Positions 30,291 through 39,579 of a DNA stretch of 64,000 nucleotides are shown piece after piece. Positions within the stretch are counted from its first letter, which is position 1, and each line of letters starts with the position of its first letter. A program made the translations under genes and the position numbers. This stretch comes from Romanomermis culicivorax (Eukaryota > Nematoda > Enoplea > Mermithida > Mermithidae), in NCBI GenBank assembly GCA_963922205.1, contig CAWUHX010000150.1, positions 124,001 through 188,000 on the forward strand. Direction: 5' to 3'. The notes beneath the pieces were generated by a model. It worked only from the letters and a program-made list of their open reading frames with translations, was not told the DNA's origin and made no database searches.

Positions 30291-31183
30291 TGTAACGACC
30301 AGATTTGTGTGAGGTACTTTACTTCTAACCAATCAGTCGATACGGCGGGGACAAATACGGGACGGGGCGCGGGCGTACGATTACAATAAAACAACGCGGA
30401 TCGACGGTCGCTTGAACGTCGACAATAAACGCGCTTCGAATTAAAATACGGACGGGGGCCTCGGTTTAAGTTGCTTTCGAATAGTCGGCCGCTTGCAAAT
30501 GTATAAAGACGGGGCGAGCGCGGAAGTCAAAACGGAAAAACCACAAGAATAAGAATGATTAAAATCACGCTTTGCTTCTTCTTTTATACGGCGATTTTGG
30601 CCACTCCCTGGACACTGCGGGAGGTCGAGCTTCTGTCCATCTTCTTCCGCCAATCGTCGTTTCCTGCTATGCTTTTTATGCTTTCTTAATTACGCCTCTC
30701 TAACGCTTTTCTGGTACCGTATGCTTTCTGTGCTTCACTTGCTTTCTACGGTGGGCTTGGCCACACCTTTGTGCTTCTGTGCATGCTTCCTGTATCGGTT
30801 TCTCTGTATACACACGTTTTGTGGGGCCGCCGCTACTGTTACACTTGAGACTACTGTACGGCGGGGCTTCTACGCATTTTACTGTGTGCAGGTGTTGTTT
30901 ACGATTTTTACTGGGGATTACGGTAGCTGTGGAATGTGTAGTTTAGTGTAGGTTCTAGGGGAACAGCTGCCGTTTGTGCAAATTAATTAGGGCATCTTAA
31001 TTGGGCTACCAGGGTGTGAACGGATCAAAATAAAGTACTTCATGTAATTTTGTAGGAATGTTTGGGTGTGAATCCCAGACACCCTTGAGACGATAAAATG
31101 TGAAAATAAAATAATATCTAATAAATGTCTATTACATACAGTATGCTACATGTTTACAGTACTGCTTTAGCAGGTACGTTACA
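30291..31183 (-). repeat. Element 3 3' LTR (893 bp)
   Basis: Seven differences from 38687-39579. Five are CpG-to-TpG or CpA changes, all in this copy. Confidence 0.93.
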
Positions 31184-31196
31184 TTTCCCTCCTTCC
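31184..31196 (-). promoter_or_regulatory. Element 3 polypurine tract
   Basis: GGAAGGAGGGAAA on the minus strand, directly before the 3' LTR. Confidence 0.8.
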
Positions 31197-31214
31197 GGAG
31201 TTGAACGTCCTCGT

Positions 31215-32675
31215 TCAAGGCTTTCGAGGTTGAGGAGGGGTGGGGATGGATTCGTTAGCTGCTTTCCGAGGGTAGAAAGGGGTTGTCTCGTTTACATGCA
31301 CCGTAAATGTAATATTCTTATGGGGGTGTTTGAGTGTAACGTTGGGGTACATGAAATTTGTGACTGTATAGGGCCCGTTCTGGCCAGGGAGGAATTTGGG
31401 ATCCAGCCCTTGTTTACACGAATGATTTTTATAAAGAATAAGATCGCCTGCCTTGTAATGTATGTTCTGAGCATGCTTGTTATACTGACGGGTATAGTGG
31501 GCTTGGGCTTTTTGCAAACTTTTCTGCACGGTTGAGAGGGCTTCTGTGAAATGCGATTTTACACGAAGGGCGTAATCGTCTAAATCAACCATGTAGGACG
31601 TGGGGAAAAAGTTTAAGGCTGCATCTGACGGCAGATTAGCTTGCCTACCGTGGAGTAATTCAAATGGGGGATATGAAGTGCTATCATTTTTATGAATGTT
31701 GATCGAAAAAACGGCGTACGGGAGATAAGTATCCCAATCAGTGTGATTTGAATTGATGTACATGCGGATACGGGTGGCTAGGGTTTGGTTGCAACGCTCA
31801 ACTTCTCCATTGGCAATGGGATGATATGGGGTAGTGTGAATTTTCTGAGTATTGCATAAACTGGTGATCCGTGAGAAGAGATCCGATACAAAATCGGTGC
31901 CACGATCACAATGGATGATTTTTGGGGACCCATGACGGCAAACAATTTTGGTTACGAATAGCTTGGCAATGGTGGCTGCGGTGATGTCAGGGGTCGGGAA
32001 TGCCTCTACATACTTTGTGAAATAATCGATGAAAACAACAATGAACCGGTTGCCGTCTTCAGTGAGGGGTAACGGTCCCATGCAATCAACACCAACTCGA
32101 TCAAATGGGCCAGTTGGCTGAATTGGTACCAAGTTTGCATGCACCTTGTGTCTAAGAGCTTTCTGTGTCTGGCATGGGTGGCAAGTTTTGCAGTAACGTT
32201 TGATATCACGGCTCATTTGGGGCCAAAAATATTTCTGTCTGAGCAAGTGTAAAGTTTTCCTGGCTGCAAAATGACCTGTGAATTTGCTGTCATGATGTGA
32301 GGCGATGAGATGCTGGACTTGCGACTTGGGAATGTATAGTTTTGCCTGTTTGTCGACTATACGGAAGAGAATGTTTTGATGCACTGCGAATTTGATCAGA
32401 GTAAGGGGGTGTTTTTGGGCGATTTTTGCTAAAATACTTTTGATAGTTGGGTCAGTGCGTTGGAGTTCGGCGAAATTTTTCTGTTGCTCTTCTTGTTCAG
32501 TTGCTTCGGCCTCAAGAACAGAATTGATGGTGGATATTTCGGGACGGGTTTCTAATTGCTCAATATCAAAGGATTGCTTTGCTGTCTGTGAGGGGAATCG
32601 AGAAACTGCATCTGCGTTGCGGTTAGCAGTGCCTTTCTTAGGGCGAATGTCTAGCTGAATACCGGAGAGGGCTAG
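31215..32675 (-). pseudogene. Element 3 RNase H-integrase connector and integrase, cut from RT by a TGA
   Basis: Same frame as the upstream RT, separated from it by TGA at 32676-32678. The first ATG is at 32384, but the frame is open from 32675. Integrase features: a zinc region with HLIASHHDSKFTGHF ... CKTCHPCQTQ, core motifs VGVDCMGPL, IHCDRGTDF and NGEVERCNQT, and a C-terminal beta-rich domain (YKAGDLILYKN ... NGPYTVTNF). Length and layout are normal for a Gypsy integrase. The ORF ends close to the polypurine tract, so there is no gene after pol. Confidence 0.9.
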
Positions 32676-38443: not shown

Positions 38444-38663
38444 TCTTGGTTTACGATGGGATTTCTGCTTAAATGCTTCAATTTTTGCTTCAGGCTGTAT
38501 TCGTTTAAATGTATCGCTTAATGTCTCGTTGGAGGGGATTTCCAGTTTGCTTTCTACGAATACTGCCTTACTGTAGGAAATGATTACTACTGTATTATCT
38601 AATGCTTCTAAATGCCCGGATAAGAGTACACCTAATTGGGGGCAGGGAGTTCCAGTGGTTAAC

Positions 38664-38681
38664 GTAACAGTACGGTCACCA
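38664..38681 (-). promoter_or_regulatory. Element 3 primer-binding site
   Basis: TGGTGACCGTACTGTTAC on the minus strand, five bases from the LTR end at 38687. Confidence 0.7.
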
Positions 38682-38686
38682 AAATA

Positions 38687-39579
38687 TGTAACGACCAGAT
38701 TTGTGTGAGGTACTTTACTTCTAACCAATCGGTCGATACGGCGGGGACAAATACGGGACGGGGCGCGGGCGTACGATTACAATAAAACAACGGGGATCGA
38801 CGGTCGCTTGAACGTCGACAATAAACGCGCTTCGAATTAAAATACGGACGGGGGCCTCGGTTTAAGTTGCTTTCGAATAGTCGGCCGCTTGCAAATGTAT
38901 AAAGACGGGGCGAGCGCGGAAGTCAAAACGGAAAAACCACAAGAATAAGAATGATTAAAATCACGCTTTGCTTCTTCTTTTATACGGCGATTTTGGCCAC
39001 TCCCTGGACGCTGCGGGAGGTCGAGCTTCTGTCCATCTTCTTCCGCCAATCGTCGTTTCCTGCTACGCTTTTTATGCTTTCTTAATTACGCCTCTCTAAC
39101 GCTTTTCTGGTACCGTATGCTTTCTGTGCTTCACTTGCTTTCTACGGTGGGCTTGGCCACACCTTTGTGCTTCTGTGCATGCTTCCTGTATCGGTTTCTC
39201 TGTATACACACGTTTTGTGGGGCCGCCGCTACTGTTACACTTGAGACTACTGTACCGCGGGGCTTCTACGCATTTTACTGTGTGCAGGTGTTGTTTACGA
39301 TTTTTACTGGGGATTACGGTAGCTGTGGAATGTGTAGTTTAGTGTAGGTTCTAGGGGAACAGCTGCCGTTTGTGCAAATTAATTAGGGCATCTTAATTGG
39401 GCTACCGGGGTGTGAACGGATCAAAATAAAGTACTTCACGTAATTTTGTAGGAATGTTTGGGTGTGAATCCCAGACACCCTTGAGACGATAAAATGTGAA
39501 AATAAAATAATATCTAATAAATGTCTATTACATACAGTATGCTACATGTTTACAGTACTGCTTTAGCAGGTACGTTACA
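38687..39579 (-). repeat. Element 3 5' LTR (893 bp)
   Basis: Pairs with 30291-31183. Followed by TTGT (39580-39583), the right target duplication. Confidence 0.93.

What the first reader, a model, noticed from the sequence alone, without database searches (positions are those of the whole stretch)
30291..39579. Gag - envelope - pol order in one polyprotein of a Gypsy-class retrotransposon
Seen: in elements 2 and 3 a Cys-rich, sequon-rich ectodomain with an upstream signal-like segment and a downstream transmembrane helix lies between the Gag zinc knuckles and the protease, in the same frame. Known: env of errantiviruses and retroviruses lies after integrase and is usually made from a spliced RNA. 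Inference: the topology is self-consistent (Gag cytosolic, ectodomain lumenal, protease-pol cytosolic), and signal peptidase could separate Gag from Env. This would be a different way to express an envelope, without splicing. Two copies share it, so it is not an assembly accident.
Basis: partly seen in the sequence, partly recalled or inferred. Interest (0 to 1): 0.92.

Follow-up and report, generated by a model that had tools for sequence, protein, structure and literature searches.

The report
Envelope gene between Gag and Pol
A young and abundant group of retrovirus-like elements, probably in a nematode, carries its envelope protein in the middle of one long Gag-Envelope-Pol protein instead of at the end, which suggests a way of making an envelope more like that of flaviviruses than of retroviruses.

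Summary
Elements 2 and 3 (minus strand) are genuine Ty3/Gypsy insertions: 4-bp target duplications, LTR differences 0/901 and 7/893. The middle region matches class III fusion glycoproteins (Pfam PF24664, 68 bits, cut-off 27) and lies between the CCHC knuckles and the protease. Element 3 is frame-broken and element 2 lacks pol, but the genome settles the order. Of 76 scored env places, 37 have one of 106 scored integrase places about 4.3 kb downstream on the same strand, 30 of them in the same open frame; none of the 106 lies upstream. A diverged family (env 38% identical) has one unbroken 2199-codon Gag-Env-Pol frame between identical LTRs. Three of three further families sampled have RT downstream in the env frame. 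Env dN/dS is 0.11, RT 0.10. Most likely mechanism, inferred: an internal signal sequence threads the ectodomain into the ER, as at the HCV core-E1 junction, leaving Gag and Pol cytosolic. No RNA or protein data were available, and a splice-based rival stays open. I found no described precedent, but a key 2025 paper could not be read.

The parts
30291..31183 (-). Element 3, 3' LTR (893 bp)
   Evidence: 7 mismatches to the other LTR; 4-bp target duplication TTGT read from the printed flanks
38687..39579 (-). Element 3, 5' LTR (893 bp)
36698..38728 (-). Element 3 Gag with CCHC knuckles and proline-rich linker
   Evidence: Retrotrans_gag 26.0 bits (cut-off 24.1), zf-CCHC; Gag dN/dS against element 2 0.17
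36626..36697 (-). Element 3 signal-like hydrophobic segment
   Evidence: 19-residue hydropathy 1.95
36359..36625 (-). Element 3 N-terminal ectodomain, in frame with Gag; frame lost at its end
35736..36272 (-). Element 3 middle ectodomain, ends at an in-frame stop at 35736
   Evidence: no Pfam match on its own
35061..35735 (-). Element 3 C-terminal ectodomain
   Evidence: PF24664 46.3 bits over the piece 34674-35735
34974..35060 (-). Element 3 transmembrane helix, in frame with protease and RT
   Evidence: hydropathy 2.40
32676..34973 (-). Element 3 cytosolic tail, protease (DTG within 34647-34673), RT (YLDDV at 33375-33389), RNase H
   Evidence: RVT_1 122.1 bits, RT_RNaseH_2 122.5; gag-asp_proteas 27.5, just under its cut-off of 28.2 (the piece searched began inside the protease)
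31215..32675 (-). Element 3 integrase, with a GPY motif read from the sequence; frame ends 31 bases before the 3' LTR, no room for a 3' env
   Evidence: Integrase_H2C2 77.7 bits, rve 36.9
12735..13635 (-). Element 2, 3' LTR (901 bp)
   Evidence: 0 of 901 differences; target duplication AACC
17632..18532 (-). Element 2, 5' LTR (901 bp)
16235..17389 (-). Element 2 Gag; four CCHC knuckles at 16235-16462
15650..16234 (-). Element 2 linker between knuckles and signal
   Evidence: dN/dS of a linker stretch 0.29 and 0.27
15578..15649 (-). Element 2 signal-like segment
   Evidence: below the hydropathy threshold used
14012..15589 (-). Element 2 ectodomain, 16 Cys, class III fusion glycoprotein
13925..14011 (-). 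Element 2 transmembrane helix
   Evidence: hydropathy 2.55
13667..13924 (-). Element 2 cytosolic tail up to the internal deletion that removed protease to integrase (junction 13672/13673)

Best explanation
A lineage of Ty3/Gypsy retroelements holds a class III (Monjiviricetes/gB-like) fusion glycoprotein between the nucleocapsid end of Gag and the protease, in one Gag-Env-Pol frame, and has kept it there through long divergence. Unspliced genomic RNA would be translated as one chain. The hydrophobic segment after Gag acts as an internal signal sequence: the ectodomain enters the ER, signal peptidase cuts behind the signal, the C-terminal TM stops transfer, and protease-RT-RNase H-integrase stay cytosolic behind the Env tail until the protease frees them. 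Gag keeps the signal segment as a membrane anchor, as HCV core does, so capsid, envelope and enzymes are made 1:1:1 at one membrane. Shown: order, single frame, domain identity by profile, purifying selection, recent transposition, env before RT in one frame in several families. Inferred: membrane insertion, cleavages, stoichiometry, budding, infectivity.
For: Frame and order: unbroken 2199-codon frame with gag, env, PR/RT and IN in that order between identical LTRs of about 396 bp with TSD CTAC. 37 of 76 env places with a scored integrase place about 4.3 kb downstream (30 of 37 at exactly 4314 bases), 30 of 37 in the same frame, 22 in frames of 2400 codons or more, none reversed among the 106 integrase places. 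3 of 3 sampled further families have RT downstream in the env frame. Domain: PF24664 68.3 and 55.4 bits for two envs 38-39% identical; the 50 best PDB matches listed are all class III fusogens (gB, GP64, Chandipura G). Selection: env dN/dS 0.11 in both comparisons, RT 0.10, IN 0.14, Gag 0.14-0.17. Topology: TM segments at 2.04-2.55 and signal-like segments flank the ectodomain; 16 of 16 cysteines conserved. No room downstream: element 3's frame ends 31 bases before the 3' LTR, L017's about 300. The nearest Met upstream of the signal-like segment is about 128 residues away in element 2 and 79 in L017, which fits translation through Gag; but L017 has two Met inside the segment and element 3 one. 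RT tree: the env-in-the-middle rows are one side of a branch, 100/99.
Against: No RNA, ribosome or peptide evidence. The element 2 signal segment is under the hydropathy threshold, and the scan has false positives in RT. Internal signals so far from the N terminus are less usual (recalled). A 1:1:1 Gag:Env:Pol ratio is odd for a particle. Sequons are not enriched. The fold model has mean pLDDT 38.5 and its PDB matches TM-scores of only 0.11-0.19. The signal segment itself is less constrained (dN/dS 0.33 and 0.16 over 27 codons). A possible in-frame splice pair exists in one family.
Confidence: 0.6

Rival explanations
1. Env is regulated by splicing: an in-frame intron is removed to give a soluble Gag-Pol, and the unspliced RNA gives Gag-Env-Pol.
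For: In the element 2 frame a donor-like CAA|GTAAGC at base 1808 and an acceptor-like TTTTTGCAG ending at 3658 would delete signal, ectodomain and half of the TM in frame (phase worked out by hand). Donor conserved in elements 2, 3 and L034; the acceptor keeps CAG with one T changed in two of the three. Partial splicing inside the coding region is known in plant Ogre elements, between GAG-PROT and RT (PMC6317226, passage). It would solve the 1:1:1 problem.
Against: L017 has no GTRAG donor upstream of its signal (weaker donors not searched). Donor- and acceptor-like words are common (3 and 5 in 3954 bases of element 2), one pair in three would be in frame, and the copies compared are close relatives.
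Confidence: 0.2
2. The middle region is translated with Gag and Pol but is not inserted in membranes; it serves inside the particle or is tolerated.
For: Signal far from the N terminus and weak in element 2; sequons not enriched.
Against: 16 of 16 cysteines conserved at 39% identity, dN/dS 0.11, TM and signal-like segments kept in both families, match to lumenal fusion proteins.
Confidence: 0.1
3. Rearranged or mis-assembled copies, or a decaying passenger.
For: Element 3 is frame-broken and element 2 lacks pol.
Against: LTRs and target duplications; 4314-base env-integrase spacing repeated across contigs; diverged families with the same order; dN/dS 0.11.
Confidence: 0.02
4. The polyprotein order is real but the elements no longer infect new hosts: Env serves transfer between cells of one host, for example soma to germ line.
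For: Many nearly identical copies in one genome (76 scored of 4210 first-look candidates, 98-100% identity).
Against: Does not compete on architecture; nothing here separates the two uses.
Confidence: 0.06

Closest known systems
Anakin (BEL/Pao elements with chuvirus glycoprotein, mosquitoes; PMC7642597, passages read)
   Same: Capture of a chuvirus-type class III glycoprotein by an LTR retroelement
   Different: BEL/Pao rather than Gypsy. For three other BEL/Pao elements that paper places the envelope-like protein downstream of the polyprotein; the position within Anakin I did not see stated
Dingle (annelid Ty3/gypsy with gB-like env; PMC7854359, passages read)
   Same: Ty3/Gypsy element with a class III, gB-like env
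   Different: Env is the protein found downstream of the integrase
Insect gypsy elements with type III fusion glycoproteins (PMC13172572, passages read)
   Same: Gypsy elements with type III fusion glycoproteins
   Different: The passages name GAG, POL and ENV as open reading frames; order not stated in them. The survey they rest on (Chary and Hayashi 2025) was not available
Lokiretroviruses (PMC9040795, passages read)
   Same: Env related to mononegavirus fusion glycoproteins
   Different: In the retrovirus lineage with dual RNase H; env described as an additional gene besides gag and pol
TelKA elements of bdelloid rotifers (PMC5408684, passages read)
   Same: Env-like glycoprotein from negative-strand RNA viruses
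   Different: Class I F protein, treated there as an ORF3, a separate ORF downstream of pol
Cer1 of C. elegans (PMC10309623, passages read)
   Same: Nematode Gypsy element without a stop between gag and pol
   Different: Extra ORF after pol, part of a spliced product, CERV, which does not resemble retroviral Env
Errantiviruses (baculovirus-derived env, passage in PMC12440569; gene order and splicing recalled)
   Same: Env-carrying Gypsy elements
   Different: Env after integrase, from a spliced RNA
HCV core-E1 junction (PMC5402940, abstract read)
   Same: Proposed working principle: capsid protein ends in the signal peptide of the envelope protein; signal peptidase separates them
   Different: Unrelated positive-strand RNA virus; analogy only

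Membership tests
Ty3/Gypsy (Metaviridae) LTR retroelement | RT and RNase H of Gypsy type, order PR-RT-RH-IN | tested here: met
   RVT_1 122 bits, RT_RNaseH_2 122.5; H2C2, rve; a tree with named Gypsy clades could not be built
Ty3/Gypsy (Metaviridae) LTR retroelement | LTRs with short target duplication, PBS and polypurine tract | tested here: met
   TSDs AACC, TTGT, CTAC read from printed flanks; PBS-like start and purine tract read from the sequence, tRNA match not tested
Ty3/Gypsy (Metaviridae) LTR retroelement | Gag with CCHC knuckles | tested here: met
   four knuckles in element 2; Retrotrans_gag 25.3 bits, cut-off 24.1
Errantivirus | env gene after integrase | tested here: not met
   31 bases between integrase frame and 3' LTR; none of 106 scored integrase places upstream of the 76 env places within 15 kb
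Errantivirus | env from spliced mRNA | not testable with these tools
   no RNA data
Class III fusion glycoproteins (Monjiviricetes/gB) | Profile match over the curated cut-off | tested here: met
   68.3 vs 27; 55.4 vs 27 for L017; profile positions 296-469 of 653 in element 2 only; Glycoprotein_B under its cut-off (16.7 vs 43)
Class III fusion glycoproteins (Monjiviricetes/gB) | Class III fold over the ectodomain | tested here: inconclusive
   best matches gB, GP64, rhabdovirus and related G, E to 2e-7 (PDB) and 1e-16 (viral), but model pLDDT 38.5 and TM 0.08-0.22
Class III fusion glycoproteins (Monjiviricetes/gB) | Membrane fusion activity | not testable with these tools
   none
Flavivirus-like polyprotein strategy (works like, not a member) | Capsid - internal signal - envelope - TM - enzymes in one frame | tested here: met
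   whole chain in L017; env to integrase in one frame in 30 of 37 paired places; env to RT in 3 of 3 further families
Flavivirus-like polyprotein strategy (works like, not a member) | Signal peptidase cleavage between capsid and envelope | not testable with these tools
   no protein data

The most novel reading that the evidence does not exclude
A clade of reverse-transcribing elements uses a flavivirus-like plan: Gag, a class III envelope and Pol are made as one membrane-spanning polyprotein from unspliced RNA, cut by host signal peptidase and the element's protease. This is an expression strategy for a retroviral envelope unlike splicing or a separate ORF, stably kept through long divergence and still mobile until recently.
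Probability: 0.55. Interest if true: 0.9.

Novelty: new variant of a known kind. Interest (0 to 1): 0.82.

Why it matters
Retroviruses and envelope-carrying retrotransposons, as far as I found or recall, put env after pol and express it apart from Gag and Pol. A clade that makes the envelope from inside a Gag-Env-Pol chain would show that env capture need not create a third gene, would tie Gag, Env and Pol to one membrane at fixed stoichiometry, and would mean that annotation looking for env after pol misses such elements. It is testable with RNA reads and in-vitro translation.

Tried and rejected
Assembly or rearrangement artefact: rejected. Decaying passenger: rejected by dN/dS 0.11. Sequon enrichment as evidence: rejected. 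Single-sequence fold: failed, pLDDT 36.1. Five-row fold: pLDDT 38.5; its fold matches are used as weak support only. PDB sequence search with the env piece: 0 matches up to E 10. Env relatives in viral contigs: none confirmed (1 and 18 pattern matches); genome contigs: none confirmed of 61 pattern matches. A protein search with the 1240-aa frame, env region, gave none of 7098 candidates at E 0.001; with the two-row env alignment 3 of 2383 at E 0.01; with five rows 4 of 2682, including Romanomermis culicivorax A0A915J6I7 (53% over half of the query) and a protein on a 1383-base contig of a gammaproteobacterial MAG, presumably eukaryotic DNA. The genome-wide PF24664 search did not complete, so class III envelopes in another position elsewhere in this genome are not excluded; the RT search of the genome did not complete either. 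Literature: listings, and passages of papers that held the phrase; no paper describing env between gag and pol was seen. Several listed papers were not opened. Chary and Hayashi 2025 (eLife 108449), the most relevant survey, is not held.
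Full report
WHAT IS THERE. The window is G000:C150:124001-188000 of a 359-Mb assembly in 595 contigs. Elements 2 and 3 lie on the minus strand. Element 2 has LTRs at 12735-13635 and 17632-18532 (0 of 901 differences, TSD AACC), element 3 at 30291-31183 and 38687-39579 (7 of 893, TSD TTGT) (TSDs read from its printed flanks). Element 2 carries one frame, 17620..13667, through Gag, four CCHC knuckles, a linker, a signal-like segment, a 16-cysteine ectodomain, a TM and a tail; an internal deletion joining at 13672/13673 removed protease to integrase. 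Element 3 has all parts, but its frame is lost inside env (between 36359 and 36272) and has stops at 35736 and 32676.

THE MIDDLE DOMAIN. Pfam finds PF24664 Monjiviricetes_fusion at 68.3 bits (cut-off 27) in element 2 env and 46.3 in the element 3 C-terminal piece; weak Glycoprotein_B and BDV_G matches lie under their cut-offs. The element 2 match covers profile positions 296-469 of 653. A model from five sequences is of low confidence (pLDDT 38.5), yet the 50 PDB matches listed are herpesvirus gB, baculovirus GP64 and Chandipura G, all class III, E 2e-7 to 4e-4, with TM-scores of only 0.11-0.19. The 50 viral matches listed are mostly glycoproteins of rhabdo-like viruses, a nyavirus, a xinmovirus and relatives, with two gBs, three entomopoxvirus proteins, one orthomyxo-related hemagglutinin and some unnamed rows; TM 0.08-0.22. 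By the tool's own warning this is weak, but it agrees with the profile.

OTHER COPIES. A six-frame search with the element 2 env piece scored 76 of 4210 first-look candidates; all 76 are 98-100% identical and 75 have no stop inside; 37 of 76 lie in open frames of 2470 codons or more. A search with element 3 integrase scored 106 of 8409 candidates. 37 of the 76 env places have one of these 106 integrase places about 4.3 kb downstream on the same strand, 30 of the 37 at exactly 4314 bases; in 30 of 37 the reported frame lengths are equal, so both lie in one frame; 22 of these frames have 2400 codons or more. None of the 106 lies upstream of an env place on its strand within 15 kb. Both lists are the best-scored part only; the other 39 env places, among them pol-less element 2, may lack integrase or only a scored one. 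Gag was not searched in these copies; the frame lengths leave room for it.

OTHER FAMILIES. L017 (contig C72) has one unbroken frame of 2199 codons with gag (27% identity to element 2), env (38%), PR-RT (34%) and IN (37%) in that order, between LTRs of about 396 bp without a difference. Its middle piece matches PF24664 at 55.4 bits on its own. L034 is another damaged copy of the element 2/3 family with the same order, and L021-L023 hold damaged copies of the L017 family. A search with L017 env scored 75 of 4005 candidates: by my count 20 at 87-100% identity and 55 at 37-44%, 19 of these 55 in frames of 2400 codons or more. For three of the 55, chosen from different frame-length groups, I fetched 700-900 bases where RT was expected: 3 of 3 hold RT on the same strand, in the env frame, with no stop, 63-74% identical to element 3 RT. 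So two families show Gag-Env-Pol in full and three more show env upstream of RT in one frame.

PHYLOGENY. In a tree of 28 RT rows (23 different) the five env-in-the-middle rows and the 23 others are separated by a fully supported branch; the program warned that long branches meet there and that such joins may be false. With the three further families, 7 such rows against 9 others (16 rows that I chose) need one change, support 100/99, 0 of 500 shuffles as low; L040 is a long row whose place is unsure. The root is a midpoint, so this shows one grouping, not a proven single origin. Of the non-env elements, the three whose upstream parts were searched (L009, L014, L018) have no PF24664 match; L009-L016 and L018-L020 gave no tblastn hit to element 2 env, and L018-L020 and L024-L033 and L035 none to element 2 or L017 env. 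Their parts downstream of integrase were not searched with Pfam. The 11 that I fetched for their long frames, apart from L017, carry single frames of 2011-2340 codons, so env was probably inserted into, or lost from, a single-frame background.

SELECTION. Nei-Gojobori counts, skipping stops and gaps: env dN/dS 0.11 (element 2 vs 3, 549 codons) and 0.11 (element 2 vs L034, 550 codons); RT 0.10, IN 0.14 (element 3 vs L034); Gag 0.17 and 0.14; Gag-Env linker 0.29 and 0.27; signal 0.33 and 0.16 (27 codons); Env-protease linker 0.04 and 0.23. Within the L017 family numbers are small: env 0.23-0.29, PR-RT 0.10-0.29, IN 0.15, Gag 0.63, so that family says less. All 16 ectodomain cysteines of element 2 are invariant with L017 env.

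HOW IT PROBABLY WORKS. The layout is cytosolic Gag, signal, lumenal ectodomain, TM, cytosolic protease-RT-RNase H-integrase. Signal-like segments score 1.95 (element 3) and 2.53 (L017) on 19-residue hydropathy; that of element 2 stays below 1.6; the same scan rises to 1.65 and 1.72 in the RT of L009 and L018. The nearest methionine upstream of the segment is 128 residues away in element 2 and 79 in L017, which argues for translation through Gag, though L017 has two and element 3 one inside the segment. The nearest working model is HCV, where core ends in the E1 signal peptide and signal peptidase separates the two (PMC5402940, abstract). Everything after the reading frame is inference.

RIVAL BY SPLICING. 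A donor-like site in the linker and an acceptor-like site in the TM of the element 2 family would remove signal and ectodomain in frame. The donor is conserved in three copies, the acceptor loses one T in two of them; L017 has no GTRAG donor upstream of its signal. Plant Ogre elements splice an intron between GAG-PROT and RT from part of their transcripts (PMC6317226, passage), so the idea has a precedent. It remains open without RNA data.

KNOWN RELATIVES. Class III envelopes have been captured by LTR elements before: Anakin (PMC7642597), Dingle (PMC7854359; downstream of integrase) and insect gypsy elements (PMC13172572); lokiretroviruses carry mononegavirus-like Env (PMC9040795) (passages). 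None of the passages seen describes env between Gag and protease. The searches showed no such report; subscription papers, most preprints and the 2025 survey by Chary and Hayashi were not available. I therefore call it a new variant of a known kind, not proven unreported.

HOST. The one env relative with a eukaryotic name is from Romanomermis culicivorax, a mermithid nematode, which suggests a related nematode as host; not tested otherwise.

Noticed in passing
42832-62445: Maverick/Polinton-like element: 696-nt terminal inverted repeats, 98% complementary; DNA_pol_B_2, Pox_A32 and rve matches in 3 of 6 frames searched.
   Followed up: partly
5988-12001: Element 1: another Gypsy element on the minus strand, Gag-PR and RT-RH-IN frames, no PF24664 match in the two frames searched; its RT falls with the non-env elements.
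   Followed up: partly
12735-18532: Element 2 has lost all of pol yet its LTRs are identical (0 of 901): a Gag-Env-only derivative that probably moved recently with pol supplied in trans.
   Followed up: partly
G000 C77:999990-1016360 and C293:386000-413000 (L021-L023): Tandem triplets of L017-family elements. Spacing on C77 is 7308 bases, close to the C72 element length (7706) minus one LTR (396), as expected for arrays sharing LTRs; C293 repeats at about 7.46 kb. A spacing of 8391 bases occurs in the element 2/3 family (C26), near element 3's LTR offset of 8396.
   Followed up: no
L018, frame residues 2019-2037: A strongly hydrophobic segment (2.67) near the end of the frame of a non-env element, after integrase; not explained.
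   Followed up: no
P0002: An env relative is filed under a gammaproteobacterial MAG on a 1383-base contig, probably eukaryotic contamination.
   Followed up: no
window 1757-5286 (-): Adjoining frames; the two that were searched (1757-3007, 2959-4854) have no Pfam match over cut-off; possibly exons of a host gene.
   Followed up: no
L017:6241-7995 (-): L017 env holds a basic RTKR stretch (furin-like, recalled motif) in its middle; element 2 env has none at that place.
   Followed up: no
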